Source of the DNA: Pseudobacteriovorax antillogorgiicola
Lineage (GTDB): Bacteria; Bdellovibrionota_B; Oligoflexia; Oligoflexales; RGVZ01
Assembly: GCA_945865565.1 (NCBI GenBank)
Contig: CAMBEK010000012.1
Location: forward strand, 1-46,602
Length of the DNA stretch: 46,602 nt
Direction: 5' to 3'
Part shown: in pieces, positions 13,217-31,313 of the stretch
Position numbering within the stretch: the first letter of the stretch is position 1
Layout of the letters: each line of letters begins with the position of its first letter
Position numbers and translations under genes: made by a program
Notes under the pieces: model-generated
What the model was told of the DNA's origin: nothing
The model's database searches: none
What the model saw: the letters and a program-made list of their open reading frames with translations, nothing else

Positions 13217-14132
13217 GTGGGGCCACCGCCAGCACACCAAGCGGCCAGACCTTCTGCGCCCCTCGACCTTGGTGCTTCAAATCAATCATCGCATTATGCG
13301 CGCCGACGTAAAGATCCAGGCGGCACTGCAGCCGGTCCACACGTTTGGTCGTGCACCACGTCCGGCGCGACAGGCATTTCACGTTGTCACGCACCATGGC
13401 GCAGGTGTGGTTCAGGGAAAACAGCGGATCCCGACCGCCGGCTTTCAGCTCGCCTTGGCCGACGACGCACCCTCTGCGCCCCTTGAAGGTCTTGTGTTCT
13501 GCGCCGGGCAGGTGTTTTCGCACAAGTTTGGGATAGCGCGGACATTGATCGGACTTCACAAGGAGGTCCGCAGAGGCCACGTGCGAGATCGTCGCCAAAG
13601 CCATACCCAGAGCATGTTTCCGGCGATCAACTCGTTTGCCATAGCGACGCCGCGAGATGGCGGCACGGCGCCCCTTGGCGGGCATGCTGGCCGCAGTGGC
13701 CGACAAGATGATGCGGCTGCCCTCTTCGACGGCCACGGCGATGGCAACGGGCTTGCACTTGCTGTGTTCAAAAGCCTCCATTTCGTCAAAAACAGCAGCT
13801 TTTACAGATTTTCTCATCCCGGCCAGGCGCGCGGCGTGGGCCGCCTGCGAGAATTTCGCCATGCGCACCAGCTTGCGTGCCACGGTGATTTGCGTCGTCG
13901 AACACAGTTTTGCAGCGCGGCGCTGGGAAACTCCCGAAATCAGAAGCATGAAAATTGGATGGTGTAAATCAGGCCGTTTTTGGCCCTCGTCGAGGGAGCC
14001 AGATGTCTGGGAAAACTGGGACTTACAGGACTTGCAGAGGAACCTCTGACGCTTTTCAGTAGGCGTATTTTTTCGCTGAAAATATCCCTTTTTGATGACT
14101 GAAAGTGATGTCTCGCAACGTGGGCAGCGCAT
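13200..14132 (-). CDS. IS1-like transposase
   Basis: 310 residues. An N-terminal zinc ribbon (C-P-R-C then C-K-S-C) is followed by a helix-turn-helix (S-Q-R-R-A-A-K-L-C-S-T-T-Q-I-T-V). The catalytic part has F-D-E-M-E-A-F-E (first acidic residues), then K-S-D-Q-C-P-R-Y-P (second Asp), then a basic segment with L-N-H-T-C-A-M-V-R-D-N and L-S-R-R-T-W corresponding to the IS1 InsB C-terminus. At the place of the third IS1 acidic residue I see Asn/His, with Asp/Glu nearby, so the exact triad is uncertain. The ATG at 14132 follows AAAGGAGG by five bases; GTG codons upstream are poorer. One continuous frame, no programmed frameshift needed. Confidence 0.87.
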   Translation of the reverse strand: MRCPRCETSLSVIKKGYFQRKNTPTEKRQRFLCKSCKSQFSQTSGSLDEGQKRPDLHHPIFMLLISGVSQRRAAKLCSTTQITVARKLVRMAKFSQAAHAARLAGMRKSVKAAVFDEMEAFEHSKCKPVAIAVAVEEGSRIILSATAASMPAKGRRAAISRRRYGKRVDRRKHALGMALATISHVASADLLVKSDQCPRYPKLVRKHLPGAEHKTFKGRRGCVVGQGELKAGGRDPLFSLNHTCAMVRDNVKCLSRRTWCTTKRVDRLQCRLDLYVGAHNAMIDLKHQGRGAQKVWPLGVLAVAPPGAAM

Positions 14133-15188: not shown

Positions 15189-15818
15189 TTGGAATTGCCT
15201 CAAGAAAAGTCATACGCAAACATCATCCTTGTCGGCGTGATGGGCAGTGGAAAATCCGCTGTTGGACCTCTTTTGGCGCACATGCTTGGGTTCGGTTTTC
15301 TCGACACGGATGCTGAAGTGGAGCGCATGACCAGAAAACCGGTTGCCCGGATTTTCATGGAGCAAGGTGAAGCCGGTTTTCGTGATCTTGAACGTAAGGT
15401 TGTTGCGCGGGTGGCAAATGCGCGCCGCCATGTGATTGCGACTGGTGGTGGAGCAGTGGGCGATGAAGGTTCTTGGCAAGAGCTGACGAAGCACGGCCTT
15501 GTCGTTTGGTTGAATCCGCCGGTGGACGAAATTGTTCGCAGGATGGCCCCCGGGCCAAAGGCCCTGCAGGGGCTGATAAGGCGCCCGTTCTTGGATGATC
15601 TCGCCGACATATCGGGTTTACCGCCGGGGACCAAAGGACCCGCCCTTCAGCAATTCATGGAAGAGAAACGCAAGCGTCTCGCAGACAGGATCAAGGCTTT
15701 GCTGGGTCAGCGTCTTGAGCGTTACCGTCAGGCGTCGATTGTTGTGGAGCCTGAGTTTGAATTGCCTGAGACAACCGCGCGAAATATCGCAGCGCAGTTT
15801 GCCCTGTTGGAGTCTTGA
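15189..15818 (+). CDS. aroK: Shikimate kinase
   Basis: 209 residues. Phosphorylates shikimate at the 3-hydroxyl with ATP, fifth step of the chorismate pathway, in the cytosol. The Walker A G-V-M-G-S-G-K-S is at 16-23, the shikimate-binding D-T-D at 39-41, F-R-D-L-E with Arg65, and G-G-G at 86-88. The lid region (R-R-P-F-L-D-D onward) has an extra stretch, making the protein longer than the ~173 residues of E. coli AroK. The start is TTG at 15189, behind GAGAGG; there is no in-frame ATG before the P-loop. The stop overlaps the gspC start (TGATG), so it heads the secretion operon. Confidence 0.94.
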   Translation: MELPQEKSYANIILVGVMGSGKSAVGPLLAHMLGFGFLDTDAEVERMTRKPVARIFMEQGEAGFRDLERKVVARVANARRHVIATGGGAVGDEGSWQELTKHGLVVWLNPPVDEIVRRMAPGPKALQGLIRRPFLDDLADISGLPPGTKGPALQQFMEEKRKRLADRIKALLGQRLERYRQASIVVEPEFELPETTARNIAAQFALLES

Positions 15819-16783
15819 TGGATATCGAGACCATAGCAAAAAGGCTTGCTCCCTTGCCTTGGCGGAAAATAGCCATTGCATTGGGTGCGTCTTTTCTTGG
15901 TGCAACGGTGGTGTCGACAATTGTGGCTTATGTTCTCGCTCCGACTGACCCGAAGAAGCTCCTTGGTGCGGAAAACCAGCAGGCCTCTGTGACAGTGCCG
16001 GAGCCATCAGTGACATTGGCCCAGGCTGTGGTTGATGAAATTCTTAAACGCAATATTTTCAATTCCGAGGGCAAGCTGGATGACGAAAAAGGTCGCGCGA
16101 AAACGGGTGAGGATTTGGCATTAACTGACCTGCCGATTCATGTCATCGGGATCATCTACGGAGGCGATCCATACACTGGAATCGCGTTGGTTGAGAATAC
16201 AACCAAGAAGAGTGCGAACAGTTTCTTGGTGGGTGATCAAGTCGAATCGGATGCGACACTCGACAGGATTGAAATTGACCGGATCATTCTTTTGCGTGCA
16301 GACGGACGCAAGGAAATCGCGGTTTTGGATCGTCAGGATATTATCCGGTCCTCTCGAAAAAAAGGCAGGATTCGCGCCAAGGGCGAGGCAGGCGGAGAAC
16401 GTGGCTTTGCGACCGAGGCACCTGGAGAGTCATTCAAGGAGCCAGGATTTGATCGCAAGGGTGGAAATATCGAGATGTCGGTGGATTATAAAAACAAGCT
16501 TCTATCGACAGATTTCGCTCAGGTTTTACAGGATGCAAAGGCATCACCCAACGTGGTCGATGGTGAGTTGAAAGGCTTTAAATTAGACCGGATCCGGAGC
16601 GATTCAATTTATCAGAAGGCAGGATTGCAGAACGGTGATGTGGTGGAGGAGATCAACGGGATTCCACTGACAGACACATCCCAGGCAATCAAGTTGCTGC
16701 AATCATTGCGCAACGAGGGTGACATCGAAGTCAGATTTTCGCGAAGCGGTGCCAAACAGAACCTGAACATGAAAGTGAAGTGA
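15818..16783 (+). CDS. gspC: Type II secretion protein GspC, first copy
   Basis: 321 residues. A short cytoplasmic N-terminus, one TM helix (about 22-42), a linker, the R-N-I-F-N-S motif that opens the homology region, the HR domain (L-P-I-H-V-I-G-I-I-Y-G-G) and a C-terminal PDZ domain (K-A-G-L-Q-N-G-D-V-V-E-E-I-N-G). GspC spans the inner membrane and links the platform to the secretin: the HR domain touches GspD N0 and the PDZ is implicated in substrate selection. The ATG at 15818 overlaps the aroK stop, so translation is probably coupled. A second GspC-like gene follows directly. Confidence 0.9.
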   Translation: MDIETIAKRLAPLPWRKIAIALGASFLGATVVSTIVAYVLAPTDPKKLLGAENQQASVTVPEPSVTLAQAVVDEILKRNIFNSEGKLDDEKGRAKTGEDLALTDLPIHVIGIIYGGDPYTGIALVENTTKKSANSFLVGDQVESDATLDRIEIDRIILLRADGRKEIAVLDRQDIIRSSRKKGRIRAKGEAGGERGFATEAPGESFKEPGFDRKGGNIEMSVDYKNKLLSTDFAQVLQDAKASPNVVDGELKGFKLDRIRSDSIYQKAGLQNGDVVEEINGIPLTDTSQAIKLLQSLRNEGDIEVRFSRSGAKQNLNMKVK

Positions 16784-16784
16784 G

Positions 16785-17780
16785 TTGAGATTGTATTTGC
16801 CCAGCCGCGATGTCCTGCTGGAAGAGCTCCAGCAACTGCCACAGCGAAAGTGGTGGCCGGATGCCGTGCGCCTTGCGCTTCGGGCATCAATGGCGGTTTT
16901 TGCAGCTTATATTATTGCCACCACGTTTTTGACCATCGTTGCCGTGGGTCCTTTGGTTGATCTGGCCACCGGCTTGCTGAACAGGCCAAAGGTCAGTGGC
17001 GGTGGGGCAGGACTGGGCATTGCATCGGTCAATTATAGGGACTTCAAGAAGTCCATCACGGATCGTAATCTTTTCAATTCATCCGGGGAGTATCCAAAAG
17101 AAGAGTTGGAACGCCGTGGTGGGGGCGATGGTCAGCCCGTTTTTGACATCAATGCACCATGCCAGCCAGGGACACTGAACCTGGAATTGATTGGGACCAT
17201 TTACCTCGGCAACCGCGATAAATCCTTTGCTTCGGTACGCGAAAAGGGTCAGGCAGACGCCGATATTTACAGGGTTGGTGAGGGGATCATTGGCAACGAG
17301 GAGGCGTTGGTTGCCGGTGTGGATCGAAATGAGGTCATAATAAACAACAAGGGAGTCAAGGAATGTCTGAGCCTTGTCTCTGATCTGGAGAAGCAGCTAG
17401 CTGCCGGGGATCTTGGTGGGGGCATTTCGGCTGGAGCAGGGTCGGGGGACCAGTTGCCGCCAGTTTTAGTCGATGGTTCTTATGTCGAGTCTGAACTTGG
17501 CGCAGGATTTGGTAAAATCATCAATGCGGCAAGGCTGGTCCCAAATACAGTTGATAACCAGATCAACGGATTCAAAATTTTCGCGATTGATCCCAGCAGT
17601 CTTTTTGCAAAAGTCGGTTTACAGAATGGTGATGTCATCACGCAGGTCAACGATGCGAGTTTAAAGAACCCTGATCAGGGGTTTGCCTTGTATGAGTCTT
17701 TTCGTAACGAACGTGAAGTACGAATCAGTGTTTTGCGCAATGGAACCACGCCTCAGATGATCACGGTCCGGATCAAGTAA
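16785..17780 (+). CDS. Type II secretion protein GspC-like, second copy
   Basis: 331 residues with the same plan as the preceding gene: TM helix (about 32-55), D-R-N-L-F-N-S motif, HR domain (L-N-L-E-L-I-G-T-I-Y-L-G), Gly-rich linker and PDZ domain (K-V-G-L-Q-N-G-D-V-I-T-Q-V-N-D). Both proteins share the block G-L-Q-N-G-D-V and similar strands throughout, but are widely diverged elsewhere, so the duplication is old. Two Cys (in N-A-P-C-Q-P-G and V-K-E-C-L) flank the HR domain and have no counterpart in the first copy; they could form a disulphide. The start is TTG at 16785, one base after the first copy's stop. Role relative to copy one is unknown. Confidence 0.85.
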   Translation: MRLYLPSRDVLLEELQQLPQRKWWPDAVRLALRASMAVFAAYIIATTFLTIVAVGPLVDLATGLLNRPKVSGGGAGLGIASVNYRDFKKSITDRNLFNSSGEYPKEELERRGGGDGQPVFDINAPCQPGTLNLELIGTIYLGNRDKSFASVREKGQADADIYRVGEGIIGNEEALVAGVDRNEVIINNKGVKECLSLVSDLEKQLAAGDLGGGISAGAGSGDQLPPVLVDGSYVESELGAGFGKIINAARLVPNTVDNQINGFKIFAIDPSSLFAKVGLQNGDVITQVNDASLKNPDQGFALYESFRNEREVRISVLRNGTTPQMITVRIK

Positions 17781-17804
17781 CGCCCGGGCAAGATGGAGCC
17801 TCAA

Positions 17805-20594
17805 ATGACCAAGGTGCAGGCAAGACAAGTCAAAAAAATGATGGTGCAAGCTGGAGCCTTGTTTGGGCTCCTTTTTGGAATCCATGGTGGGCAGATTTTG
17901 GCCCAGGGCACTCCGACCCTGCCACCACCGCCGCCCCCTGCGGTTGATTCTGCTGCGCCAGCAGAACCACCAGTTGCGGTTCTGCCACCCGCCGATGCGC
18001 CAGCACCTGCTGCTGTGCCTCCTGCCACCGTTGATGCTGCAGTGGCGCCGCAACCAACACCTGCGCCGCTCACTCCTGACGCGCCGGCTGTCGTCAGCAC
18101 GCCCCAACCCGCGGCTCCCGTGGAAGGGCAGCCGGGAAAGCCAGTGAAATCAAAACCGGCAAGGAAAACCCCAGGCGGAAAGTCGTTCAAGGACAGGGCC
18201 AAGACAGAGCCTTTCATCCCGGCGGGTGAACCGACTGATTCTGCCAGTTCAGGCATGCCAGCCGAATCACCGGAGGCGGCTGCAAAGGTCGAGGTTCAAG
18301 CCAACAAGAGTGAAGGCAAAAGAGGTTCATCAACGATCCCGTCAGGCCAGGAACTTATCAATATCGATTTTCCGGAGCCGACTGAAATCAAGGACATCAT
18401 CAAGGCGGTTGCCTTGTGGACGAACAAGAACGTTATTCTTGATCGTAACGTCAGTGGCAAAGTCCAAATCATCTCGCCCCGCAAGGTGACCAAGGAAGAA
18501 GCCTACCAGGCGTTCTTGTCCGCCCTGAACTTGCTGGGGATGACCACGGTAGAGACTGGAAAAGTCATCAAGATCATGCCGGTCCGCACTGCCGTAAAAG
18601 ATAATCTCAAAACCTTTCTTGGTTCAAAATGGACTCTTTTAACGGATGAAATCATCACTCAGATCGTTCCTTTGAAGTACATCGAGGCGAAGGAAATTCA
18701 GAACACCCTTTCACGCATTGTTTCGTCGAACTCGATGATCGCCTACGAAAAAACCAACACACTGATCATCAGTGACAGTGGTTACAAGGTTCGTCGAATT
18801 TTGGACATTCTGGAATTACTCGATGTGCAGGGGCAGCAGCCGCAGGTCTCGATTGTCCCGATTCGCTATGCGGACGCGAAGGGCATTGTTGAAAAGATTA
18901 ACGAACTGATGAAGGCTGGCGCCGGACGCGGAACCCCAGCGTATAAATTACTTACAGATGAGCGTTCAAATGCGGTCATCATTTTTGGACCTCCGCGGAC
19001 GATTTCTGATGTCAAGGCTCTGGTGAAAAAATTTGACACGGCGCTTGACGATCCAACCAAGCAGGCCACTATCCATGTCCGTCCGTTGGACTATGCGGAT
19101 GCAAAAAAACTGTCTTCGACCCTCTCAAATCTGGCCCAGGGCAAAGGTTCCGGTGGGGGAGGAGGTCGTCGCATGACGCCGCTTCGCCCTTCGGCGGGTC
19201 CAAATGGGCAGATGATTCCGGGCGGCGAGGCGGTCGTTGCGGAGCTCGATGAGGGGACTAAAATTACTGCCGATGAGCAGTCCAACTCGCTATTGATCAC
19301 CGGAAGCCGCGCGGCCTACAACGCCATCAATGCCATTGTGCGCAAGCTCGATATCCGTCGCAGTCAGGTTTTTGTCGAAGCCGACATTCTTGATATTAAC
19401 GTAGATAACAGATTCAAGTTCGGCACCAGCATCTTCGGGGGGCGCGGAGGGCAAGGGAATTCCAATATCATCACGACATGGGAGGCAAGTAAGATCGCTC
19501 CACTGGTTGCCGCGCAAGCAGCCGGAACAACCGCAAGCTCAGCGGCCGCTGTGGAAAAGGTTGCGGGAGCGTTTGCCGAGGACATGACGATCGGTATTCT
19601 TGCTGGAAACTCTGTGGAGGTGCCGGGGCTTGGCAAATTTACTCCCGGAGCATTGATCAAGCTGATCAAAACCGACTCCAATACGCGCGTCTTATCCTCG
19701 CCTCACATTCTCACTGCCAACAATGAAGAAGCCAAGATAACCGTGGGTGAGAAGATTTTCTTCAAGTCGGCTGAATTCAACGCCCAGACCGGGGTTGCGA
19801 TTCCAAAGATTGAAAAGGAAGACGTCGATTTGACTCTGAGCCTCAAGCCCAACATCAGTAATGCGAACTTTGTGACGATGAAAGTTGATCTTGAATCAAG
19901 TACACCACAGGTTGATTCCCAGACCGGCCTGCCAAAAATCAACAAGCGAAAGACGTCACAAACGTTGACTGTCAAGAACCAGCAGACGGTAGTGGTTTCA
20001 GGTCTGGTACAGTCGACCGAGTATGAAACGTTCCAGAAGATTCCACTGCTCGGTGACATTCCCATCATCGGATGGCTGTTCCGCAACTCTACAACCGGAA
20101 GCGTTAGAAACAATCTCGTGATCTTCCTGACCCCGCATATCATTCATGGTGCTGACGATCTTGCGGCGGTTTATCAGGCGAAAATCAAGGAACGTGATGA
20201 CTTCATGCAGCAGGTATACGGCTCGCGTTTCAAGAAGGATGATTTTTATGCACTGCTGCCTAAGGCTGCGGACGGCGAGCACAAGCCCAATGAATCAGAG
20301 ATTCAAGAGAAGCAACTGCGTGAGCAGTCGATGCGCGAGCCGCTTTCGGCCAATGAAAATCAAAACTCAAGTGAAAATGCCAATGACGCTGGGGATGGCA
20401 ACGAAACGCTGGAATCGGAAACAGTTCCTGTGCCGTTTATCGGCGGTGGGTCCAGTTCTGGTGGTGGCGAAGGCGCGGGTGGATCTCCTCTTCCCCCGCC
20501 GCCCCCGCCGCCGGCGCCTCAGGGTGGCTTTGGTGGTGACGGCGGATCCTTCGATGCGCCTCCGCCTGTCGAGCCGCCTCCGCCAATGGAGTGA
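17805..20594 (+). CDS. gspD: Type II secretion secretin GspD
   Basis: 929 residues, well above the usual 650-700. A signal peptide ends near I-L-A-Q-G, then comes a Pro/Ala-rich segment (about residues 36-110) before N0 (I-N-I-D-F-P-E-P-T-E-I-K-D-I-I-K). N1-N3 domains follow, with a Gly-rich loop in N3, then the secretin core with V-S-G-L-V-Q-S, I-P-L-L-G-D-I-P-I-I-G-W-L-F and the closing N-L-V-I-F-L-T-P-H-I-I. A long acidic tail and a Pro/Gly-rich terminus end the protein. It forms the outer-membrane multimeric pore. I prefer ATG 17805 (GGAG six bases upstream) to ATG 17793. No lipoprotein box is seen. Confidence 0.96.
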   Translation: MTKVQARQVKKMMVQAGALFGLLFGIHGGQILAQGTPTLPPPPPPAVDSAAPAEPPVAVLPPADAPAPAAVPPATVDAAVAPQPTPAPLTPDAPAVVSTPQPAAPVEGQPGKPVKSKPARKTPGGKSFKDRAKTEPFIPAGEPTDSASSGMPAESPEAAAKVEVQANKSEGKRGSSTIPSGQELINIDFPEPTEIKDIIKAVALWTNKNVILDRNVSGKVQIISPRKVTKEEAYQAFLSALNLLGMTTVETGKVIKIMPVRTAVKDNLKTFLGSKWTLLTDEIITQIVPLKYIEAKEIQNTLSRIVSSNSMIAYEKTNTLIISDSGYKVRRILDILELLDVQGQQPQVSIVPIRYADAKGIVEKINELMKAGAGRGTPAYKLLTDERSNAVIIFGPPRTISDVKALVKKFDTALDDPTKQATIHVRPLDYADAKKLSSTLSNLAQGKGSGGGGGRRMTPLRPSAGPNGQMIPGGEAVVAELDEGTKITADEQSNSLLITGSRAAYNAINAIVRKLDIRRSQVFVEADILDINVDNRFKFGTSIFGGRGGQGNSNIITTWEASKIAPLVAAQAAGTTASSAAAVEKVAGAFAEDMTIGILAGNSVEVPGLGKFTPGALIKLIKTDSNTRVLSSPHILTANNEEAKITVGEKIFFKSAEFNAQTGVAIPKIEKEDVDLTLSLKPNISNANFVTMKVDLESSTPQVDSQTGLPKINKRKTSQTLTVKNQQTVVVSGLVQSTEYETFQKIPLLGDIPIIGWLFRNSTTGSVRNNLVIFLTPHIIHGADDLAAVYQAKIKERDDFMQQVYGSRFKKDDFYALLPKAADGEHKPNESEIQEKQLREQSMREPLSANENQNSSENANDAGDGNETLESETVPVPFIGGGSSSGGGEGAGGSPLPPPPPPPAPQGGFGGDGGSFDAPPPVEPPPPME

Positions 20595-22561: not shown

Positions 22562-23782
22562 TTGCCACAGTATTCCTACAAAGGACTTGATGCAGCAACG
22601 GGTGCCCATAAAAAAGGCAAGGTTGAAGCCGAGTCGGTGAAAGCTGCGCGGCAGAAGTTGCGCCAGCGCGACGGAATCATGGTATCTGAAATTAGCGAAG
22701 AAGCTGCGACGGCTCAGGCCAAGACAAAGTCCCGATTTTCTGCATCAAGGGTTTCACCGCAGGACGTTGCGATCATGACCAGGCAGTTTGCGACCTTGCA
22801 GACAGCGTCGGTGCCCCTTGATGAGTCCCTGCGTGCACTGACTCAACAGGTCGAAAACCATGTTTTGAAGAACGCTCTGGGTTCGGTCAAGGATCAGATT
22901 TCCGAGGGTAAATCCCTGGCAGAGGCGATGGGTTCATTCCCCGGCGTCTTTGATCGTTTGTATGTCAACATGGTTCGCGCCGGCGAATCATCGGGAAATA
23001 TGGCCCAGGTTCTTGAGCGTTTGGCTGATTTCATTGAGTATCAGGTAAAAATCAGGGGTCAGATTGTCACTGCAATGACCTACCCTGCAGTGATGATCTT
23101 GGCTAGTTCAAGTATTGTTGTTTTTCTCTTTGTCAGCGTCGTCCCCAAACTCCAAAAGGTATTTGTCAGTCTAAAAGTTCAACTGCCCTGGTACACGGAA
23201 TTGCTGATCAAGATTTCGGAATTTCTGCAAAACTATTGGTGGCTGGTTGGTGCGTTTGGCGTATTTGCCTGGTTTGCCGCAAAGTACTGGGTATCAACGG
23301 ATGCCGGTCGGCGTAAGTTTGATGAGATCGCCCTGAAACTTCCGGTGTTCGGACCGATTATCTTGCGGCTGAACGTGTCCCGCTTCACGCGCACTCTTTC
23401 AACGCTCCTCAATTCCGGGGTTCCGATCATCCAGGCCCTCGAGATTACCAGGAATGTGATCCCGAACTCGGTTCTGGCGAGCGTTCTAGACGAGGCCAAG
23501 GTTGCTGTCCAGGAGGGCAAAAGCCTCAGCAGCACGATTGACAAGAGTGGTGAATTTCCGCCTCTTGTGGTCCACATGATTATGACTGGCGAGAAAACGG
23601 GAAAGCTTGAAGAAATGCTCGGGCATGTCGCCACAGCGTATGATGCAGAAGTCGAGCGGAAGGTCAGCGCAATGATCTCGCTGATCGAGCCGGCGATGGT
23701 TATTTTGATGTCGGGGGGTGCCGGGGGCATTTTGGCGGCTTTGATGATCCCAATGCTGAGTGTGATGAATCGACTGCGGTGA
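22562..23782 (+). CDS. gspF: Type II secretion inner-membrane platform protein GspF
   Basis: 406 residues, the standard length. It begins P-Q-Y-S-Y-K-G-L-D, as GspF/PilC proteins do, has two T2SSF domains (about 70-195 and 270-395, the latter with L-L-N-S-G-V-P-I-I-Q-A-L) and three TM helices (about 170-190, 220-240, 375-400). Forms the core of the inner-membrane assembly platform and contacts GspE. The start is TTG at 22562, seven bases after GGGGAG; the only nearby ATG frame ends at once in TGA. Confidence 0.94.
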   Translation: MPQYSYKGLDAATGAHKKGKVEAESVKAARQKLRQRDGIMVSEISEEAATAQAKTKSRFSASRVSPQDVAIMTRQFATLQTASVPLDESLRALTQQVENHVLKNALGSVKDQISEGKSLAEAMGSFPGVFDRLYVNMVRAGESSGNMAQVLERLADFIEYQVKIRGQIVTAMTYPAVMILASSSIVVFLFVSVVPKLQKVFVSLKVQLPWYTELLIKISEFLQNYWWLVGAFGVFAWFAAKYWVSTDAGRRKFDEIALKLPVFGPIILRLNVSRFTRTLSTLLNSGVPIIQALEITRNVIPNSVLASVLDEAKVAVQEGKSLSSTIDKSGEFPPLVVHMIMTGEKTGKLEEMLGHVATAYDAEVERKVSAMISLIEPAMVILMSGGAGGILAALMIPMLSVMNRLR

Positions 23783-23817
23783 TTTTTGGGAAGTTTTAAA
23801 GTACGATATTATCCGTG

Positions 23818-23835
23818 TCGGGCGCTGAGCCGACG
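23818..23835 (+). other. Hairpin upstream of gspG
   Basis: GTCGG and CCGAC form a 5-bp stem with an eight-base loop in the 77-bp gap before gspG, the largest gap in the operon up to gspK. No U-run follows. A 5'-stabilising element for the highly translated major pseudopilin message is conceivable, but this is inference. Confidence 0.3.
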
Positions 23836-23859
23836 CCATTGCATATCAAGGAGCAGATG

Positions 23860-24330
23860 ATGAGTTTGTTGCGCAGAATCAGTGTGATGTTGAAGAAGCC
23901 GTTCTCCAAGGCAGCGAAGTCAGGCATGACGCTGATTGAGATCATCATTGTGGTCGCTCTGATGGGAACCCTGATGGCCTATCTTGTCCGGAACCTTGTC
24001 GGTCAGCAGGAAGAGGCGAAGAAGGATCAGACGAGACTGGGTATGGGAGTGCTGGAACAAAGCCTTCAGTTGTACCGTGTCCATAATTCACGTTATCCAA
24101 GCACCGAGCAGGGATTGGATGCAATGATCGCGGCTCCGTCCGATGTCAAAACCTGGCGTGGACCCTACACCGAAAATAACAAGCTGAATGATCCTTGGGG
24201 CAATAAGTTCCAGTTTGAATCTGATGGTCGCAACTTCAAGATCATCAGCGGAGGTCCGGATGGTTCCGTCGGCAATGCTGATGACATTGTGTATCCTGAG
24301 CAACCTGCAGGCGGCGGAACGACTCCTTAG
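23860..24330 (+). CDS. gspG: Type II secretion major pseudopilin GspG
   Basis: 156 residues. A 22-residue basic leader ends at K-S-G, cleaved before M-T-L-I-E-I-I-I-V-V-A-L; Glu is at +5 as needed, while +1 is Met rather than the usual Phe. The globular part has the GspG block (Y-P-S-T-E-Q-G-L-D-A, then W-R-G-P-Y, then D-P-W-G-N) and the Ca-binding C-terminal loop (G-P-D-G-S-V-G-N-A-D-D-I). Polymerises into the periplasmic pseudopilus. Of two adjacent ATGs I choose 23860, six bases after AAGGAG. Confidence 0.95.
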   Translation: MSLLRRISVMLKKPFSKAAKSGMTLIEIIIVVALMGTLMAYLVRNLVGQQEEAKKDQTRLGMGVLEQSLQLYRVHNSRYPSTEQGLDAMIAAPSDVKTWRGPYTENNKLNDPWGNKFQFESDGRNFKIISGGPDGSVGNADDIVYPEQPAGGGTTP

Positions 24331-24344
24331 TTTAAGGGGTGAGT

Positions 24345-25097
24345 ATGCCGTCGGCTAACCGTGGCTTCACACTTTTCGAAGTTGTTGTGGTCATCGCGTT
24401 GGTTGCTTTCGTTTATTCCATTGCGATACCGCAGTTCAGTTTAAAGTCAGGGGCCGAGGCGGCCACCAAGGTCGGACGTCTCGCTGAAGACGTCCGCAGT
24501 GCATTTGATTTATCTGTGCTGACGGGCAAGCCCTACCGCCTTGTTTTTGAACTCAATGGCGGCCGTTATTGGTTGGAGACGACCGACCGCCCGGAATTTC
24601 TTCTCGGTGACCAGAAGGCCCAGAGCGATCCCACTGAGGAGGAAGAGCGCGATTTAGACAGCGCCACCGAATCCGCATTCTTGGAATACGAATCTCTCGC
24701 AGGTGAGCCGATTATCGACCCCGACACCCGGACCGAATTCAAGCCGGTATCCCCTGTGGTTCTTGCGAAATCCAAGCTGATGCGTCCCAAATGGACCCGG
24801 GTTTCGAACCTTGAATGGCGGGAAAGGACGATTGGACCTTACCTGATGATCAAGGAGATGCAAGCAGAGCACCACGCAACAAAACAGTCTGTGATGGACC
24901 TGTCAGAGAATGGTCGGGCCTTTTTGTATTTTTTGCCCGGTGGCTACGTTGAAAAGGCATGGATGATTGTGTCTTATAAAAAAGACGAGCGTCAGCCAGA
25001 CGATTCTATTACCCCTTACACGATGAAAACTAATCCTTATTCCGGAACGCTTGAGACGATTGGTACGGGCGAGGAAAGCACGGTGACATTTGATTGA
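24345..25097 (+). CDS. gspH: Type II secretion minor pseudopilin GspH
   Basis: 250 residues. A very short leader (P-S-A-N-R-G) precedes F-T-L-F-E-V-V-V-V-I-A-L, with Gly at -1 and Glu at +5. The chain is longer than most GspH proteins because of an acidic insertion (E-E-E-E-R-D-L-D region, about residues 88-110). C-terminal strands have the L-S-E-N-G-R-A and L-P-G-G-Y-V-E segments of the GspH/FimT fold. The ATG at 24345 lies five bases after AAGGGG; a GTG two codons upstream is embedded in that site. Confidence 0.88.
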   Translation: MPSANRGFTLFEVVVVIALVAFVYSIAIPQFSLKSGAEAATKVGRLAEDVRSAFDLSVLTGKPYRLVFELNGGRYWLETTDRPEFLLGDQKAQSDPTEEEERDLDSATESAFLEYESLAGEPIIDPDTRTEFKPVSPVVLAKSKLMRPKWTRVSNLEWRERTIGPYLMIKEMQAEHHATKQSVMDLSENGRAFLYFLPGGYVEKAWMIVSYKKDERQPDDSITPYTMKTNPYSGTLETIGTGEESTVTFD

Positions 25098-25815
25098 CGT
25101 AGATCAACAGGCCAAGCAGACGCACGTCGGGCCGCCTTTGAGGCGACTTTCCGGTGAGCGCAGTTTTACCTTGGTCGAGACCGTCATAGCATTGAGTTTG
25201 ATTGCATTTCTCATTGTCGAAATGGGCGGAGTCCAGGGCAATGCGATCTCTTTTGCGGAATACGGCCGGCGGGTAACGGAAGCCTCTTGGCTTGCAAAAC
25301 GCATCATGGGTGAGGTCGAGTATCAATCATCCTTCAGGCCGTTCAAGGAACTGACGACTTCGATCAAGGACCAGAAGTTTGAAGATGCTCCAGACTATTC
25401 TTACGACCTGGAAATTCAGGATTGGAAGTTAAACCTTTCGAGCATCCTTGCGGGAATTCTCTCTGCCCGGAAGGGTGCAGATGGAGAGCCCTCGGCTGCA
25501 GCCGGCATGGGTGAAATCGTCAAAATTGCCTTGGAGCAGGCAATCGGTGATGATTCCTTCAAGATGGCGAAAGTGACTGTGTCATGGCCTGAGGGTGCGA
25601 CAAGAAACAGCACCAGCCTTGGCATGATTCTTACCAATCAAGAGAAAATGGATAGTTCGCTTGCTGGATTGAAAGGTGCCTGGGATACATTACAAAAACA
25701 AGAATCTGCGGCTCCCGGGTCCAATCCCGGATCAAATCAGCCCGGAGCTCCTCCAGTTGCGCCTCCGGTAGCACCCCAAACGCCCCCAACGCCAGGCGGA
25801 GGTGCGGCACCATGA
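25090..25815 (+). CDS. gspI: Type II secretion minor pseudopilin GspI
   Basis: 241 residues beginning with TTG inside the end of gspH; GAGGAAAG lies 11 bases upstream. The hydrophobic helix F-T-L-V-E-T-V-I-A-L-S-L has Glu at +5, but the residue before Phe is Ser (G-E-R-S), not the Gly required by most prepilin peptidases. The C-terminal third is Pro/Ala/Gly-rich (P-P-V-A-P-P-V-A-P). Position between gspH and gspJ and the helix identify it as GspI, which nucleates the pseudopilus tip with GspJ and GspK. The sequence away from the helix is poorly conserved, so confidence in the letter rests on order. Confidence 0.83.
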   Translation: MIDVDQQAKQTHVGPPLRRLSGERSFTLVETVIALSLIAFLIVEMGGVQGNAISFAEYGRRVTEASWLAKRIMGEVEYQSSFRPFKELTTSIKDQKFEDAPDYSYDLEIQDWKLNLSSILAGILSARKGADGEPSAAAGMGEIVKIALEQAIGDDSFKMAKVTVSWPEGATRNSTSLGMILTNQEKMDSSLAGLKGAWDTLQKQESAAPGSNPGSNQPGAPPVAPPVAPQTPPTPGGGAAP

Positions 25816-26591
25816 GTAAATTCCACGATCGTAACGGGCGAGCGGGTTTTACGCTCATCGAAATAATGATCTCGATCAGCATCTTATTGTCGCTCACTGT
25901 GGCAGTCGTCGTGATGATGCGCTCAAGTATCGATGTCCGGCAGGCCTTATCGATCCAGTCGCGATCTGTTCGGCAGCTCAACTACGCAATGGAAATGATT
26001 TCTCGTGACATTGAACATGCATTTGTCCTCAGCACCACAGATCAGATCCGCATGCCCATCGAGCGAAATTTCAAGACAATCTTCCGGGTTGATCCGGCGG
26101 GTGATAGTGACAAATTGTCCTTGACCACGATGGCCAACCAGCCCGTCGTTGCCAACCTGATGGAGGGTGATCAGGGCTACGTCGTCTACGAATTAAAGGA
26201 TGCTGAGGGGCGACCCGGCGAGAAAGACTTACACCGTGCCACGGCTAGCATGGCAACCGCAAATTTTCGCGAGGACCCAACGTCGAACATGATTTTACAA
26301 AACGTGAAATCATTTAAGGTTATTGCCTGGCGAGGAGACGACTGGTTGCGCGACCGCTGGGATTCAAGCCGCAGCGACACCCGCAACAAGCTTCCCAAAA
26401 TGGTTCGAATCGAAATCGCAGCCTTTGTTGATACCGCTGGCACCCCTTTTGGTATTCCCGTCGATCAAGGCAGTGGAAGTGATTCCACTCAGAAGGCCGC
26501 TACGTTTGAATTGAAAACAATCGTCGTCCCCGCCCTTTCCTCAGGGATGGCAGAGCTCAAACAGCCTGTCAGCAGTATCAGGTGGTACTGA
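25812..26591 (+). CDS. gspJ: Type II secretion minor pseudopilin GspJ
   Basis: 259 residues. Leader M-S-K-F-H-D-R-N-G-R-A-G then F-T-L-I-E-I-M-I-S-I-S-I, Gly at -1 and Glu at +5. The N-terminal globular part has the R-Q-L-N-Y-A-M-E-M-I-S-R-D-I-E segment typical of GspJ (a helix of Arg/Asp before the first strands). Forms the tip complex with GspI and GspK. The ATG overlaps the gspI stop by four bases (ATGA), so translation is likely coupled. Confidence 0.9.
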   Translation: MSKFHDRNGRAGFTLIEIMISISILLSLTVAVVVMMRSSIDVRQALSIQSRSVRQLNYAMEMISRDIEHAFVLSTTDQIRMPIERNFKTIFRVDPAGDSDKLSLTTMANQPVVANLMEGDQGYVVYELKDAEGRPGEKDLHRATASMATANFREDPTSNMILQNVKSFKVIAWRGDDWLRDRWDSSRSDTRNKLPKMVRIEIAAFVDTAGTPFGIPVDQGSGSDSTQKAATFELKTIVVPALSSGMAELKQPVSSIRWY

Positions 26592-26593
26592 AC

Positions 26594-27877
26594 GTGAGTT
26601 GGAATTCCATTAAATTACGATTTACGTTACCCGCAGTTGAGTGGGGTTTTCCTGTAGCTCCGCAGCACACAAATGGTGAACGGAAGTCGCGGGGTGTGGC
26701 ACTTCTGATGGCGGTCATGCTGATCGCATTGATGATGCTTTTCGCTGCGGATTCAATCGTTACATCGCAGGTCGACTTGCAGCTCGCTGTGACACACAGG
26801 GACCGGATTCGTGCTGAATTTGCGGCCAAGTCCGGTTTCAATCTGGCGACTTTTCTACTTTCAGCAGATCTGGCAAAAGACCTGACCATCGGTTCAACTC
26901 CTGGCCTGCAGAAACTCGGCCTTGGCGACACCAATATTCGTTTGTGGGACCTGCTGAATCAATTGCCGCCGATCGGTGGAGCCGATTCAGAGATGATCCA
27001 GATTTTGGCGCAGAGCTTTGGGTTAAATAGTGTGCTGGACTCATCTGTTCTGGATCAGCTCAAAGCCATCGAGGGATCGTTCGAGATCAAGGTTTCTGAC
27101 GAGCAGCAAAAAATCGACGTGAACTACTGCTCTAGCGGGGCCAGGGAACCTTGTGCGGCTGTTCGTGCAATGCTTACAGCACTGTTCAGTTGTCCGGCAG
27201 AAAAGGCTTTTTTGGCAAAAAAACGCCTGACCCCAATGGAGCTTTCGGCGCGCATTCAGGATTGGGTGGATCCCGATTCGCGGACGGAATCTGAATCAGG
27301 ATTTTCAGACGAATCAGACCCTTACCAGAAACGTAAAAAACCATTCAAATCCAAAAACGGGCCGCTTGATTCCATTGATGAACTCAAAATGATTGAGGGG
27401 TGGGATGAAGAGGTCCATACGGTTTTTGCTCCTTATCTCACGGCGTATCCGATCTGGAAAAAGCGCGAAGATCGGGCCCGGATCAATCTGAATTCTGCGC
27501 CTCGTGAATTGCTGCAGTGCTTGTTCCAGGACGCGGGTCCAGACCGGTTTAGAAAGCTCGCGCAGATGCTCCGATTGCGCGAAACAGATTTCAAAGACAT
27601 TGCCGGAAAAGACAAACCCATGGATCAAGTGATCGCGGACCTGTTTGGATACAACAAAAACGACGCCGGATCGGCCAACCAGGCGGATCCAACCAATAAA
27701 TCGTCGTGGTTTGGTAAAATGTCCCAAACCTATCGAATTTCCATCAAGGCTACGTCGGGGGACACAGTTCGAACCCTGGACGCGGTGGTTGAAAGGGTGG
27801 TCCCCGACGGGACGGCCGCTGGTGCCAACCTTTCGAGCCGGGCGGCGTACCGTATTCTCTACTGGCGGTTCCTCTGA
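26594..27877 (+). CDS. gspK: Type II secretion minor pseudopilin GspK
   Basis: About 427 residues. The processing site K-S-R-G is followed by V-A-L-L-M-A-V-M-L-I-A-L with no Glu at +5, as is normal for GspK. The large globular part contains G-x-x-D/E Ca-type loops, W-V-D-P-D-S-R-T-E-S and R-I-N-L-N-S-A-P, the conserved GspK helix-hairpin element. GspK caps the pseudopilus tip. The start is probably GTG at 26594, eight bases after AGGTGG; GTG 26582 is an alternative. The ~33-residue leader is long for this protein. Confidence 0.92.
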   Translation: MSWNSIKLRFTLPAVEWGFPVAPQHTNGERKSRGVALLMAVMLIALMMLFAADSIVTSQVDLQLAVTHRDRIRAEFAAKSGFNLATFLLSADLAKDLTIGSTPGLQKLGLGDTNIRLWDLLNQLPPIGGADSEMIQILAQSFGLNSVLDSSVLDQLKAIEGSFEIKVSDEQQKIDVNYCSSGAREPCAAVRAMLTALFSCPAEKAFLAKKRLTPMELSARIQDWVDPDSRTESESGFSDESDPYQKRKKPFKSKNGPLDSIDELKMIEGWDEEVHTVFAPYLTAYPIWKKREDRARINLNSAPRELLQCLFQDAGPDRFRKLAQMLRLRETDFKDIAGKDKPMDQVIADLFGYNKNDAGSANQADPTNKSSWFGKMSQTYRISIKATSGDTVRTLDAVVERVVPDGTAAGANLSSRAAYRILYWRFL

Positions 27878-27910: not shown

Positions 27911-27959
27911 AGAATCTGACTGCAATTTCGCCGGGATAGCCTTTTCGGGATATTTGTTG

Positions 27960-29702
27960 ATGCAAAAGATAATCGGGCTCGACATTGGCAGCTATTCCAT
28001 CAAGGCCGTTGAGATCATCAACACCTTCAAGTCGTACGAGATTGCCAACTTTTACGAGACCATCATTCCCATTCGTGAAGATGTCGATCCCGACATTGTT
28101 GTTCCATCTTGCATGGAGCAGTTGTTCCGCGAAAATGCTCTTGATGCCGATCGCATCATTACCGCAATGCCGGGGCAGTACATATCAAGCCGTATTTTGT
28201 CGTTCAATTTTTCGGATCCTCGCAAAATTCAGGCGGCCGTCTTTTCAGAAGTAGAAGATGTTGTCCCGTTTAATCTCGATGAAATGATCATTGACCATCA
28301 GATCCTTGGCACCGCAGATTCAAAAACGCTGGCGCTGATTGTCCTGACCAAAAAGATTTTCCTCAAAACATTTTTGGAGCATCTTCAGAAAATTCACATT
28401 GATCCAAAGTTGGTCGATGTGGACAGCCTTTCCTTCTATAACCTTGGTCCACATTTAAAGCTGGATCCAAATGAGGTGGTTGGGCTGGTCGATATTGGAC
28501 ACGAAAAAACCAGTGTGTGCTTGATCCAAGGCGACGTCTTGCGGATGTTCCGTTCGATCAACATGGGTGGCAAGTTCCTGACAGAATTCCTCGCGCGAGA
28601 TCTTGAGATTCCCTATGTGCAGGCTCAAGACCTCAAACATGCAACCGGGCGTCTTGATTTTGAAGCTGACCCTGCGACCGGCCTGACTGGTCTTGAGCGG
28701 CGTGCAGCAGAGCGCATGACGCTGGGAATCAATTCGCTCGTCAAGGAACTTGGGCGTACCCTATACGCATTCAAGACTTACGAAAAGTCGCCGGTTGCGC
28801 GGCTGATGATCTCCGGTGGCACATCCAGAATCAGCAATCTGGATAAATATCTCGCCAACAGGCTCGAGATGGATGTTTCCCGGCTTGATCTCGGTGCCAC
28901 AACCCTTCGGATGAATCCAAACCTGCAGAGTCACGCTGCAATCATTCCCCAGGCTGTGGCCATAGGTTTGCGTTCTGTCGGGACTTCCAAGAAGCTGAGT
29001 ACGATCAATTTGCGGCGCGGCGAGTTCGCGTACGTCCAAAACTACGAGTCGTTGATCAAAGCTGCAGGGCTTGCCAGCAAGGCAGTCGCCTTTGCGGTGC
29101 TGCTTTTGCTCGGCAGTTTCGGCATAAAATCGGTTTTCTACAACCGCCAGATCAGCCAGTTGCAGCAACTTTATACCAAAGAGATCGCGGCCCAGTTTCC
29201 GGATCTCAAAAGGAAGTTGAAGACTGAAGGTGTTTTATTTTCAAAGGTGCGGACGGATTTTAAAAATCTTGCCAAGAAAGAAACTTTGGCCCGCCGCAAC
29301 GCCGTCGATTCTTTTGTTCGGGAGAACTCGACAACGCCTGCTCTGATGGTCCTCAGGTTGTTGAGCGAGAGGATTCCAAAGAGCGTGAAGGTCGATGTAA
29401 CCACCTTTGACTTTGTGCTCAGCCCAGACGGTGGTGGGAAACTGAGGCTCAAGGGCGAAACCGATGGTTATGCATCTGTGGCAACCGTCATTGAGTCGCT
29501 CAAGACCGTTCCGGCCTTTCGGGATATCGAGGAAAAGCAAAGCGGACCAAAGCCGGGTACCGATGGGAAAGTGATCGAATTCATGATTGGGCTAAATTAT
29601 TCAGGAGAAGGTGCCTCGTCGCAGACGGCAAGCAAGGACCAAAAAACGCCAGGTTCTTCCGGCTCGCCGAAACCATCAAGCCCTCAGGACAAGCCACTAT
29701 GA
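27960..29702 (+). CDS. gspL: Type II secretion protein GspL (PilM-like plus PilN-like)
   Basis: 580 residues. The N-terminal half is an actin-like PilM/GspL cytoplasmic domain (I-G-L-D-I-G-S-Y-S-I-K-A-V-E near the start; G-L-V-D-I-G-H-E-K-T; M-I-S-G-G-T-S-R). A TM helix at about 370-394 leads to a periplasmic coiled segment and a ferredoxin-like PilN/GspL domain, ending in a Ser/Pro/Lys-rich tail. This join of PilM-like and PilN-like parts is the normal GspL design; it recruits GspE and binds GspM. I start at ATG 27960, ignoring two TTG codons just upstream. Confidence 0.9.
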   Translation: MQKIIGLDIGSYSIKAVEIINTFKSYEIANFYETIIPIREDVDPDIVVPSCMEQLFRENALDADRIITAMPGQYISSRILSFNFSDPRKIQAAVFSEVEDVVPFNLDEMIIDHQILGTADSKTLALIVLTKKIFLKTFLEHLQKIHIDPKLVDVDSLSFYNLGPHLKLDPNEVVGLVDIGHEKTSVCLIQGDVLRMFRSINMGGKFLTEFLARDLEIPYVQAQDLKHATGRLDFEADPATGLTGLERRAAERMTLGINSLVKELGRTLYAFKTYEKSPVARLMISGGTSRISNLDKYLANRLEMDVSRLDLGATTLRMNPNLQSHAAIIPQAVAIGLRSVGTSKKLSTINLRRGEFAYVQNYESLIKAAGLASKAVAFAVLLLLGSFGIKSVFYNRQISQLQQLYTKEIAAQFPDLKRKLKTEGVLFSKVRTDFKNLAKKETLARRNAVDSFVRENSTTPALMVLRLLSERIPKSVKVDVTTFDFVLSPDGGGKLRLKGETDGYASVATVIESLKTVPAFRDIEEKQSGPKPGTDGKVIEFMIGLNYSGEGASSQTASKDQKTPGSSGSPKPSSPQDKPL

Positions 29703-30358
29703 ATGAACTTCGGCAGTTTCTTGAGCAACTGAGGGAGCGTCTGAACCAACTGTTGGATCAGATTCGGATCCGCGCATTCGGTGCCAATAATGAACGCCTC
29801 GATTTCTTGATGGACAGCTTTTATAAGCTGGAACCAAAAGAGCGGGTTGGGGTTCTTGCTGGGGTTGCGGGCGGCATTGGCTTTGTCATCATTGTTGCCT
29901 TTGGGATTTATTTTTCCCAGGTCAACCGTTTGAAGGCTGAATTGAACGATGCCTTTGCAGCCTTGCATGAACTTCAGGAATTAAAGGCTGATTATTCTAT
30001 TGAAGATGCCCGCTTTCAAAGGGTCATCGAGCAGGTTCAAAAGAAAACGGGAGATCTTCAGGTAAAGCCTTTTTTTGAGAAGATCGCGCGTGACACTCTG
30101 GTGCAGATTGAAGGCCTCAACGTTCAAAAAAATCCCCTGGACGCCGATAATCCACTTGGTTCAAAAATGCAGGAGGTTAAGGTCAAGGATCTGCGAATCA
30201 ACAACACCTCGATTCCCAAGGTTCTCAACTTTTTGATCGAAATAGAGAAGGCGAATAATTATATCCGGGTCCAAGATATAGAGATTCGTGGGCGGTTCGG
30301 AACCCGCCTGTACTTTGATACGAAACTGACCGCTCGCGGTTATATGGTCGGCGGTTGA
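29699..30358 (+). CDS. gspM: Type II secretion protein GspM-like
   Basis: 219 residues. An amphipathic charged N-terminus of ~48 residues, one TM helix (about 50-72), a coiled coil (F-S-Q-V-N-R-L-K-A-E-L-N-D, continuing) and a periplasmic ferredoxin-like domain. The same layout is shared by GspM and PilO. The ATG overlaps the gspL stop (ATGA). Position after gspL and before gspN supports GspM. The cytoplasmic arm is longer than in enteric GspM. Confidence 0.85.
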   Translation: MNELRQFLEQLRERLNQLLDQIRIRAFGANNERLDFLMDSFYKLEPKERVGVLAGVAGGIGFVIIVAFGIYFSQVNRLKAELNDAFAALHELQELKADYSIEDARFQRVIEQVQKKTGDLQVKPFFEKIARDTLVQIEGLNVQKNPLDADNPLGSKMQEVKVKDLRINNTSIPKVLNFLIEIEKANNYIRVQDIEIRGRFGTRLYFDTKLTARGYMVGG

Positions 30359-30359
30359 A

Positions 30360-31313
30360 ATGACGGACTGGCTCACCAAACTCAATGGCAGGACCGGCGT
30401 TGGCGTCATTTTTGCTGTGAGTTTTGTTTTTTTTCTTATGGTCACTTTTCCCTATGAGATCCTCAAGGAATCGATTTCAAATGGGCTTTCCAGGGTGACT
30501 GGACTTTCGATCACGATGGATGATTTCGGGGCCAAGCTGCCGATCGGGATGCAGGCAAGCGGATTGTCGGTCTCCAGCCAAGGGCAGAAGGCGAAGACAA
30601 TAAAGCTCAATCGGCTCTCTGCGCGTATCAATCCCCTGTATGTTCTGGCCGGAAAATTGGCAGTGAAGGTCTACATCGAGAATCCCGACCAATCGGCCAT
30701 GGGCGTTTTTATTGTAATTCCCTTGAGCGCGGTGTTGGGTGGTGGAAACATCATTCCCAGTCGGATTGAGCTTGATTCACAAAATTTTCGTGTCGACGAC
30801 CTCGCCGCTTTTGCCTTATCGGCAATGGCGTCTGGTAGTGACGTAAATCCGTTGCTTGGTCCAGTGCTCCAGGGGATCGGCTTCTCTGGAAAACTTGATG
30901 GTGCCATCGATCTTTCAATCGATACCTCTGCACCACAGCAATCCGCCGGAACCATCAAAATCAAATTCAAGGATGCAGTTTTAAAGCTGAGCGATCCTTC
31001 CCTTGGCCTTCCAGACCAGCAGTTTTCGAAGGCTGGGATTCAAGCAGCGCTCAACAATGGGGTGTTGGTCATCGACAAGGGGGCGGGTTTTGAGTCTGAT
31101 GAATTGACACTGTCGGCCGGTGGCTCAGTGGCCGTCAAGTCGCCGCTCTCCGGGAGTCAACTTCAGCTAGAAATTTTGGTAAAACTGCAAAAATCACTGG
31201 CCGAAAAGTTTGGATTTCTTTTGGATGCATTTTCTGGCGGAGCAGCGCAAAATGGTGAGTTGCGCCTGCAGGTCAAAGGACCCCTTTCTCAACCATCGAC
31301 CCAACCAATTTGA
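30360..31313 (+). CDS. gspN: Type II secretion protein GspN
   Basis: 317 residues. A TM helix (about 12-32) is followed by V-T-F-P-Y-E-I-L-K, the GspN opening, and repetitive beta-strands of an AsmA/lipid-transfer-like periplasmic domain (L-S-A-R-I-N-P-L, then G-K-L-D-G-A-I-D-L). GspN is an accessory inner-membrane part of some type II systems and is the last gene here. The start is one base after the gspM stop; a hairpin and a new promoter follow, so the operon likely ends here. Confidence 0.88.
   Translation: MTDWLTKLNGRTGVGVIFAVSFVFFLMVTFPYEILKESISNGLSRVTGLSITMDDFGAKLPIGMQASGLSVSSQGQKAKTIKLNRLSARINPLYVLAGKLAVKVYIENPDQSAMGVFIVIPLSAVLGGGNIIPSRIELDSQNFRVDDLAAFALSAMASGSDVNPLLGPVLQGIGFSGKLDGAIDLSIDTSAPQQSAGTIKIKFKDAVLKLSDPSLGLPDQQFSKAGIQAALNNGVLVIDKGAGFESDELTLSAGGSVAVKSPLSGSQLQLEILVKLQKSLAEKFGFLLDAFSGGAAQNGELRLQVKGPLSQPSTQPI

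What the first reader, a model, noticed from the sequence alone, without database searches (positions are those of the whole stretch)
15818..17780. Two adjacent gspC-like genes in one secretion operon
Both encode TM helix, R/D-N-(I/L)-F-N-S, HR and PDZ domains and meet with one base between them. GspC is normally single and connects platform and secretin while helping choose substrates. The second copy has two extra Cys around the HR domain. Two connectors could form a hetero-ring or serve different cargo.
Basis: partly seen in the sequence, partly recalled or inferred. Interest (0 to 1): 0.55.

Follow-up and report, generated by a model that had tools for sequence, protein, structure and literature searches.

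The report
Conserved twin GspC secretion linkers
A group of environmental bacteria builds its protein-export machine with two different copies of a linker protein that well-studied bacteria make only once, and both copies have been kept side by side across the group, offering a natural way to find out how these linkers are arranged.

Summary
Window 15818-16783 and 16785-17780 encode two complete GspC proteins (TM helix, RN(I/L)FN motif, HR domain, PDZ domain) one base apart, heading a full type II secretion operon. Both predicted HR domains match the solved GspC HR (3OSS: Z 11.6 and 10.4). The pair is not a local duplication: C1 and C2 lie adjacent in 57 of 58 genomes held for the phylum (all one class; Oligoflexales plus a second order); in the 58th the contig ends inside gspD. 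C2 rows form one clade, so the split most likely predates the class. Both copies are under strong purifying selection (dN/dS 0.037-0.059 in the 6 of 12 pairs that could be computed). The two cysteines around the C2 HR domain are invariant (50 of 50). One N0-type secretin was found in the draft genome, and the operon has single gspL, gspM and gspN, so two GspCs appear to serve one machine. My best reading: C1 and C2 are the two non-identical halves of the GspC linker layer, which in Klebsiella was measured as two GspC per GspE/L/M. A new variant of a known system, inferred from sequence; no interaction was tested. Other phyla could not be sampled, so how far the pair extends is unknown.

The parts
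15818..16783 (+). gspC1 (321 aa), canonical-type GspC
   Evidence: T2SSC 47.7 bits, PDZ_6 31.6 bits; model m4a08d8290a75
15860..15937 (+). C1 transmembrane helix (residues 15-40) with small residues four apart
   Evidence: DSSP on model; column counts
16049..16063 (+). C1 RNIFN motif (residues 78-82)
   Evidence: R, N, F each 51 of 51 rows
16121..16330 (+). C1 HR domain (residues 102-171)
   Evidence: 3oss_C Z 11.6, rmsd 1.2, 64 aligned
16481..16777 (+). C1 PDZ domain (residues 222-320)
   Evidence: 2i4s Z 9.2, rmsd 3.6, 103 aligned
16785..17780 (+). gspC2 (331 aa, TTG start), divergent GspC
   Evidence: T2SSC 32.8 bits; model m614cf4ddb5e5
16854..16979 (+). C2 long membrane helix (residues 24-65)
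   Evidence: DSSP on model; column counts
17064..17078 (+). C2 RNLFN motif (residues 94-98)
   Evidence: R 50, N 48, F 49 of 50 rows
17160..17162 (+). C2 Cys126, just before HR strand 1
   Evidence: 50 of 50 rows
17166..17378 (+). C2 HR domain (residues 128-198)
   Evidence: 3oss_C Z 10.4, rmsd 1.3, 65 aligned
17364..17366 (+). C2 Cys194 in the last HR strand
   Evidence: 50 of 50 rows
17475..17774 (+). C2 PDZ domain (residues 231-330)
   Evidence: PDZ_2 24.6 bits, under its cut-off of 27; 2i4s Z 8.8, rmsd 4.2, 99 aligned
17793..20594 (+). gspD secretin
   Evidence: TIGR02517 442.5 bits, over cut-off
18381..18575 (+). N0 domain of GspD, the HR docking domain; the only N0 match found in this draft genome
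20619..22523 (+). gspE ATPase
   Evidence: TIGR02533 631.7 bits, over cut-off
22562..23782 (+). gspF
   Evidence: TIGR02120 440.1 bits, over cut-off
23815..24330 (+). gspG major pseudopilin
   Evidence: TIGR01710 95.9 bits, over cut-off
24339..25097 (+). gspH-like pseudopilin
   Evidence: TIGR01708 30.8 bits, under its cut-off of 80
25090..25815 (+). gspI by position, weak N_methyl match
   Evidence: 16.1 bits, under its cut-off
25812..26591 (+). gspJ
   Evidence: T2SSJ 36.2 bits, over cut-off 28
26582..27877 (+). gspK
   Evidence: T2SSK_1st 50.5 bits, over cut-off; NCBIfam GspK 97.7, under 130
27954..29702 (+). gspL with PilM-like domain
   Evidence: PilM_2 86.9 bits; NCBIfam GspL only 16.8 bits against 65
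29699..30358 (+). gspM by position (weak GspM match, E 0.15)
30360..31313 (+). gspN
   Evidence: TIGR04411 102.4 bits, cut-off 50

Best explanation
C1 and C2 are two non-interchangeable forms of the GspC linker of one type II secretion machine. Each sits in the inner membrane by its own TM helix, joins the GspL/GspM platform through its TM and the RN(I/L)FN segment, and sends an HR domain up to the base of the single secretin and a PDZ domain into the periplasm. Most likely they are used together, about one C1 and one C2 per GspL/M unit, so that the linker layer that Klebsiella builds from two copies of one PulC is built here from two specialised subunits. C1 keeps the canonical N0-binding surface. 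C2 has a disulfide-stapled HR domain with a more polar contact patch and probably binds elsewhere on the secretin base or beside C1. Shown: two intact genes, predicted folds, conserved adjacency, selection, invariant Cys and motif, one N0 secretin found. Inferred: hetero-pairing, 1:1 use, the disulfide, the binding sites.
For: Adjacent C1-C2 in 57 of 58 held genomes; gap of -14 to +43 bases in 45 of the 49 loci where both ORFs have 260 aa or more. C2 is one clade (43 rows, SH-aLRT 95), apart from C1 plus C3, with both orders of the class on each side. dN/dS 0.037-0.059 in 6 of 12 pairs; in the other 6 synonymous sites were saturated. Both keep RN-F (C1 51 of 51 at each; C2 50, 48 and 49 of 50) and small residues four apart in the TM (C1 45, 49 and 46 of 51; C2 46 and 48 of 50). 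One N0 secretin match in the genome; single L, M, N in the operon. Precedents: PulC:E:L:M:N = 2:1:1:1:1; [quoted passage not shown] C1 HR is nearer the solved GspC HRs (E 1.3e-9 to 3.1e-5) than C2 HR (3.4e-5 to 0.17); the site equivalent to ETEC Val141 is hydrophobic in 47 of 51 C1 and Thr or Ser in 40 of 50 C2.
Against: No interaction, stoichiometry or phenotype was tested and no complex was modelled. The 2:1 ratio is a densitometry result; PMC11981180 says GspC dimers in the platform are not experimentally confirmed. In Dickeya the periplasmic part of OutC did not self-interact, though TM segments did. That RN(I/L)FN binds L/M is my inference, not shown in any passage I read. The other known contact site (ETEC Ala133) is hydrophobic in all rows of both copies, so C2 may still bind N0 in the usual way. 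Conservation of two genes also fits two alternative, not simultaneous, linkers. The genome is a draft (about 90% complete), so a second secretin could be missing.
Confidence: 0.48

Rival explanations
1. C2 is a scaffold or assembly factor that works like GspB/OutB: its HR domain holds the secretin N0 ring during assembly, while C1 alone is the working linker.
For: [quoted passage not shown] C2 HR is the diverged one and has an invariant Cys pair.
Against: C2 keeps a conserved PDZ region and the RN-F motif. OutB is described with a peptidoglycan-attaching C-terminal region. C2 aligns with C1 as a full-length GspC. The GspB HR entry 4wfw was listed for the C1 model (Z 7.3) and not among the 50 rows for C2, which does not favour C2 as the GspB-like one.
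Confidence: 0.22
2. C1 and C2 are alternative linkers whose PDZ domains choose different cargo, giving mixed or exchangeable machines.
For: The 2P/PDZ region is assumed by some to bind cargo (passages); the two PDZ domains carry different conserved signatures.
Against: Each signature is conserved over 27 rows that span the class, which suits a fixed partner better than varied cargo; both genes stand side by side in 57 of 58 genomes.
Confidence: 0.2
3. A simple gene-dose duplication with redundant copies.
For: Tandem layout and common ancestry.
Against: C1 and C2 are far diverged (BLAST sees only 33% identity over 99 PDZ residues), split before the class and keep different invariant residues.
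Confidence: 0.04

Closest known systems
GspC (PulC, OutC, EpsC, LspC) of type II secretion systems
   Same: TM, HR and PDZ order, position before gspD, HR fold (3oss Z 11.6 and 10.4), PDZ fold (2i4s Z 9.2 and 8.8)
   Different: Two full-length, long-diverged copies in tandem where one is usual; C2 has an invariant Cys pair and mostly Thr/Ser at one known N0 contact site
GspB/OutB plus GspC/OutC of Dickeya
   Same: Two membrane proteins with HR domains in one T2SS, both reported to interact with N0 (passages)
   Different: GspB has a peptidoglycan-attaching C-terminal region; here both proteins are full GspCs with PDZ domains
PilP of type IVa pili
   Same: HR-like fold (3jc8 Z 8.5 and 2lc4 Z 8.1, rmsd 5.0 each, for C1)
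   Different: PilP is a lipoprotein without PDZ (no PDZ is recalled); C1 and C2 sit in a gspC-N operon with an N0-type GspD

Membership tests
GspC (T2SS linker), C1 | T2SSC profile over curated cut-off | tested here: met
   47.7 bits against 27
GspC (T2SS linker), C2 | T2SSC profile over curated cut-off | tested here: met
   32.8 bits against 27
NCBIfam GspC_delta equivalog, C1 and C2 | score over the model's cut-off (150 bits) | tested here: not met
   139.9 and 133.5 bits. This withholds the narrow NCBIfam name only; membership of the broader GspC family rests on the other rows.
GspC (T2SS linker), C1 and C2 | HR-domain fold | tested here: met
   3oss_C Z 11.6 and 10.4, rmsd 1.2 and 1.3, on predicted models
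GspC (T2SS linker), C1 and C2 | PDZ or other 2P domain at the C-terminus | tested here: met
   C1 over the PDZ_6 cut-off; C2 under Pfam PDZ cut-offs but 2i4s, PDZ of EpsC, is the top Foldseek match of both models
GspC (T2SS linker), C1 and C2 | N-terminal TM helix | tested here: met
   hydrophobic helix 15-40 and 24-65 in the models; no dedicated TM predictor was run
GspC (T2SS linker), C1 and C2 | HR binds N0 of the cognate GspD | not testable with these tools
   no co-folding available; contact-site residues compared only
GspB/OutB, C2 | TM plus HR with a peptidoglycan-attaching C-terminal region instead of PDZ | tested here: not met
   C2 ends in a PDZ-fold domain
Complete type II secretion system | D, E, F, G, J, K and N in one operon, each over a curated cut-off of Pfam or NCBIfam | tested here: met
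   H, I, L and M rest on position or sub-cut-off or PilM-type scores

The most novel reading that the evidence does not exclude
In this class the GspC layer is an obligate hetero-assembly: each platform unit carries one C1 and one C2 (C1:C2:L:M about 1:1:1:1), with C1 docking on N0 and the disulfide-stapled C2 filling a second, distinct site. The two GspC positions, indistinguishable in model systems, would be genetically separated here, so tagging each could settle the disputed 12-against-15 linker arrangement.
Probability: 0.38. Interest if true: 0.75.

Novelty: new variant of a known kind. Interest (0 to 1): 0.55.

Why it matters
How GspC links a sixfold platform to a fifteenfold secretin, and whether two GspC per unit are really built in, is open: PMC6882859 infers 12 PulC from densitometry, PMC11981180 models six and calls the dimer unconfirmed. 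A machine in which the two copies are different genes lets each be tagged, deleted or mutated on its own. It also warns annotators that a second gspC in this class is not a duplicate or an error.

Tried and rejected
Pfam T2SSC alone suggested that the second order (family code f12) has one gspC or none. Reading the loci showed both copies there too; the Pfam model misses one. First impression withdrawn.

I first took the Cys pair in C1 of L072-L081 as the same disulfide as in C2 (it stands so in my notebook). Against the shared G-x-K-E motif the second Cys is three residues off (E-2 against E+1), so it may be an independent gain; I do not claim that the pair is ancestral.

G013 looked like a genome without the pair. 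Its gspD match starts at residue 253 of the query and runs to base 13508, which is the end of that contig, so it is uninformative.

Two separate T2SSs sharing the window operon: rejected for this genome, where one N0-type secretin was found. The second GspF-type match on contig C1 is likely a pilus platform protein (not checked).

Sampling other phyla failed: the genome search takes only G handles as a centre, and the phylum search reached 58 genomes, all of one class. P0002 against plasmids gave two E. coli records with gspC at 24%.

Paper searches with no report of paired gspC genes, judged from listings. PMC6668835 (passages only) mentions gspC twice, not as paralogs. The library is open-access papers only, so this does not show that none exists.

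Foldseek did not list 3oss among the 50 rows shown for C1; VIA-align did.

Full report
What is there. The window lies on a 2.5 Mb draft genome of 44 contigs. Gene order from 15189 is shikimate kinase, gspC1, gspC2, gspD, gspE, gspF, gspG, gspH-like, gspI by position, gspJ, gspK, gspL with a PilM-like domain, gspM by position, gspN. gspC1 starts on the last base of the kinase stop codon and gspC2 starts one base after the gspC1 stop. Both proteins are GspC by Pfam and both fall 10 to 17 bits short of the NCBIfam GspC_delta cut-off.

Architecture. AlphaFold models from 25-row alignments (mean pLDDT 74.5 for C1, 73.2 for C2; pTM only 0.38 and 0.34, so domain placement means nothing) show a TM helix, a short helix ahead of or at RN(I/L)FN, a low-confidence linker, an HR beta-sandwich, a low-confidence linker and a PDZ domain. 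VIA-align puts both HR domains on ETEC GspC HR (3oss_C: C1 Z 11.6, rmsd 1.2, 64 aligned; C2 Z 10.4, rmsd 1.3, 65 aligned). Profile comparison aligns C1 and C2 through TM, motif, HR and PDZ (289 columns, E 5e-50), while plain BLAST sees only the PDZ (33% over 99 residues): a full-length but old duplication.

Distribution. I read 51 loci from relatives (L012; L032-L081). With the window, all 52 show a C1-type gene next to a C2-type gene; for L046 the C2 piece at the contig end is seen. In five of the 52 one copy is cut by a contig end (L045, L046, L047, L061, L067). Adjacent matches in G046, G047, G051 and G056, G057 bring this to 57 of 58 held genomes; in G013 the contig ends inside gspD. The query was C2 itself and the loci overlap the 58, so they are not extra counts. 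The other order (f12) is not named by any search; Silvanigrellales is my recollection.

Age and selection. In a tree of 98 rows (quick method, E. coli K-12 GspC as a very long outgroup) all 43 C2 form one clade (SH-aLRT 95). C1 with a third type, C3, lies on the other side (support 86), with C3 nested among C1 rows and both orders of the class on each side. The split therefore most likely predates the class; the long outgroup makes the root less certain. Within the genus, dN/dS of both copies is 0.037-0.059 in the 6 of 12 pairs where dS could be computed, with dS of 0.6 to 2.5; gspD gave 0.049 in the one of 6 pairs that could be computed.

Differences between the copies. C2 carries Cys126 and Cys194 around the HR domain in 50 of 50 rows. 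C1 has no Cys pair at that spacing in 41 of 41 rows of the window's order but has one in 10 of 10 rows of the other order and f13; there the second Cys lies three residues from the C2 position, so it may have arisen separately. That both cysteines come or go together supports a disulfide (inference). C1 HR is closer to the solved GspC HR domains than C2 HR (best E 1.3e-9 against 3.4e-5). Korotkov et al. (PMC3169554, passages) name Ala133 and Val141 of ETEC GspC as buried contacts to N0. By the alignments the Val141 site is hydrophobic in 47 of 51 C1 and Thr or Ser in 40 of 50 C2, while the Ala133 site is hydrophobic in all rows of both. C2 also has an invariant D160 and Y162 in HR strand 3 (50 of 50); the Tyr has an aromatic equivalent in C1 and in 3OSS, the Asp does not.

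Shared membrane features. RN-F is kept in both. Both TM helices have small residues four apart: C1 45, 49 and 46 of 51; C2 46 and 48 of 50. [quoted passage not shown]

How it most likely works. Chernyatina and Low (PMC6882859, passages) found PulC:E:L:M:N of 2:1:1:1:1 and propose 12 PulC reaching a 15-fold secretin, each HR on one N0. PMC11981180 (passages) models six GspCLM units and notes that GspC dimers are unconfirmed and that extra GspC monomers might sit on free N0 domains. PMC9239104 (passages) reports that two HR proteins, OutB and OutC, meet one secretin. In this draft genome two GspCs share one N0 secretin and single gspL, gspM and gspN genes in the operon. I infer that C1 and C2 fill the two GspC places, C1 as the canonical N0 linker and C2 as a stapled partner with its own site. 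The GspB-like and cargo-choice readings remain open.

Limits. No complex could be modelled, nothing outside this phylum could be sampled except single E. coli sequences, and most genomes are drafts. The novelty statement rests on open-access full-text searches judged from listings.

Noticed in passing
L051, L055, L057, L060, L063, L066, L069 (family code f11): Two adjacent gspD-type genes follow gspC1-gspC2 in 7 of the 8 f11 loci; the eighth, L071, shows two shorter pieces. The six f11 ORFs scanned (first copy in L055, L057, L060, L066; second in L057, L060) all have N0, Secretin_N and Secretin matches. The first copy sits on long branches (2.3 to 6.3) against 0.3 to 1.7 for the second (the tree warns that the place of such rows is unsure): an extra secretin evolving very fast.
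   Followed up: partly
L108-L119, for example L108:5904-6677 and L112:6042-6731: A third GspC-like protein (C3): HR-like and PDZ regions, no RNxF motif in 12 of 12, several with what looks like a signal peptide by eye, on other contigs or far from the T2SS operon in most genomes. It nests with C1. Matches in 45 of 58 genomes by reading; none seen in the window's genome. Neighbours were compared by ORF size only; L112 and L114 look alike, others do not.
   Followed up: partly
17793-18380: GspD has 196 residues, largely Pro- and Ala-rich, ahead of its N0 domain, and a Pro/Gly-rich C-terminal tail.
   Followed up: no
L072-L081 C1 genes: C1 of the second order and f13 also has a Cys pair around the HR domain (10 of 10), its second Cys three residues from the C2 position.
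   Followed up: partly
15189-15818: A shikimate kinase gene overlaps the gspC1 start; a kinase match lies upstream of the pair in 40 of 42 loci of the order (not seen in L051 and L067) and in none of the 10 loci L072-L081.
   Followed up: no
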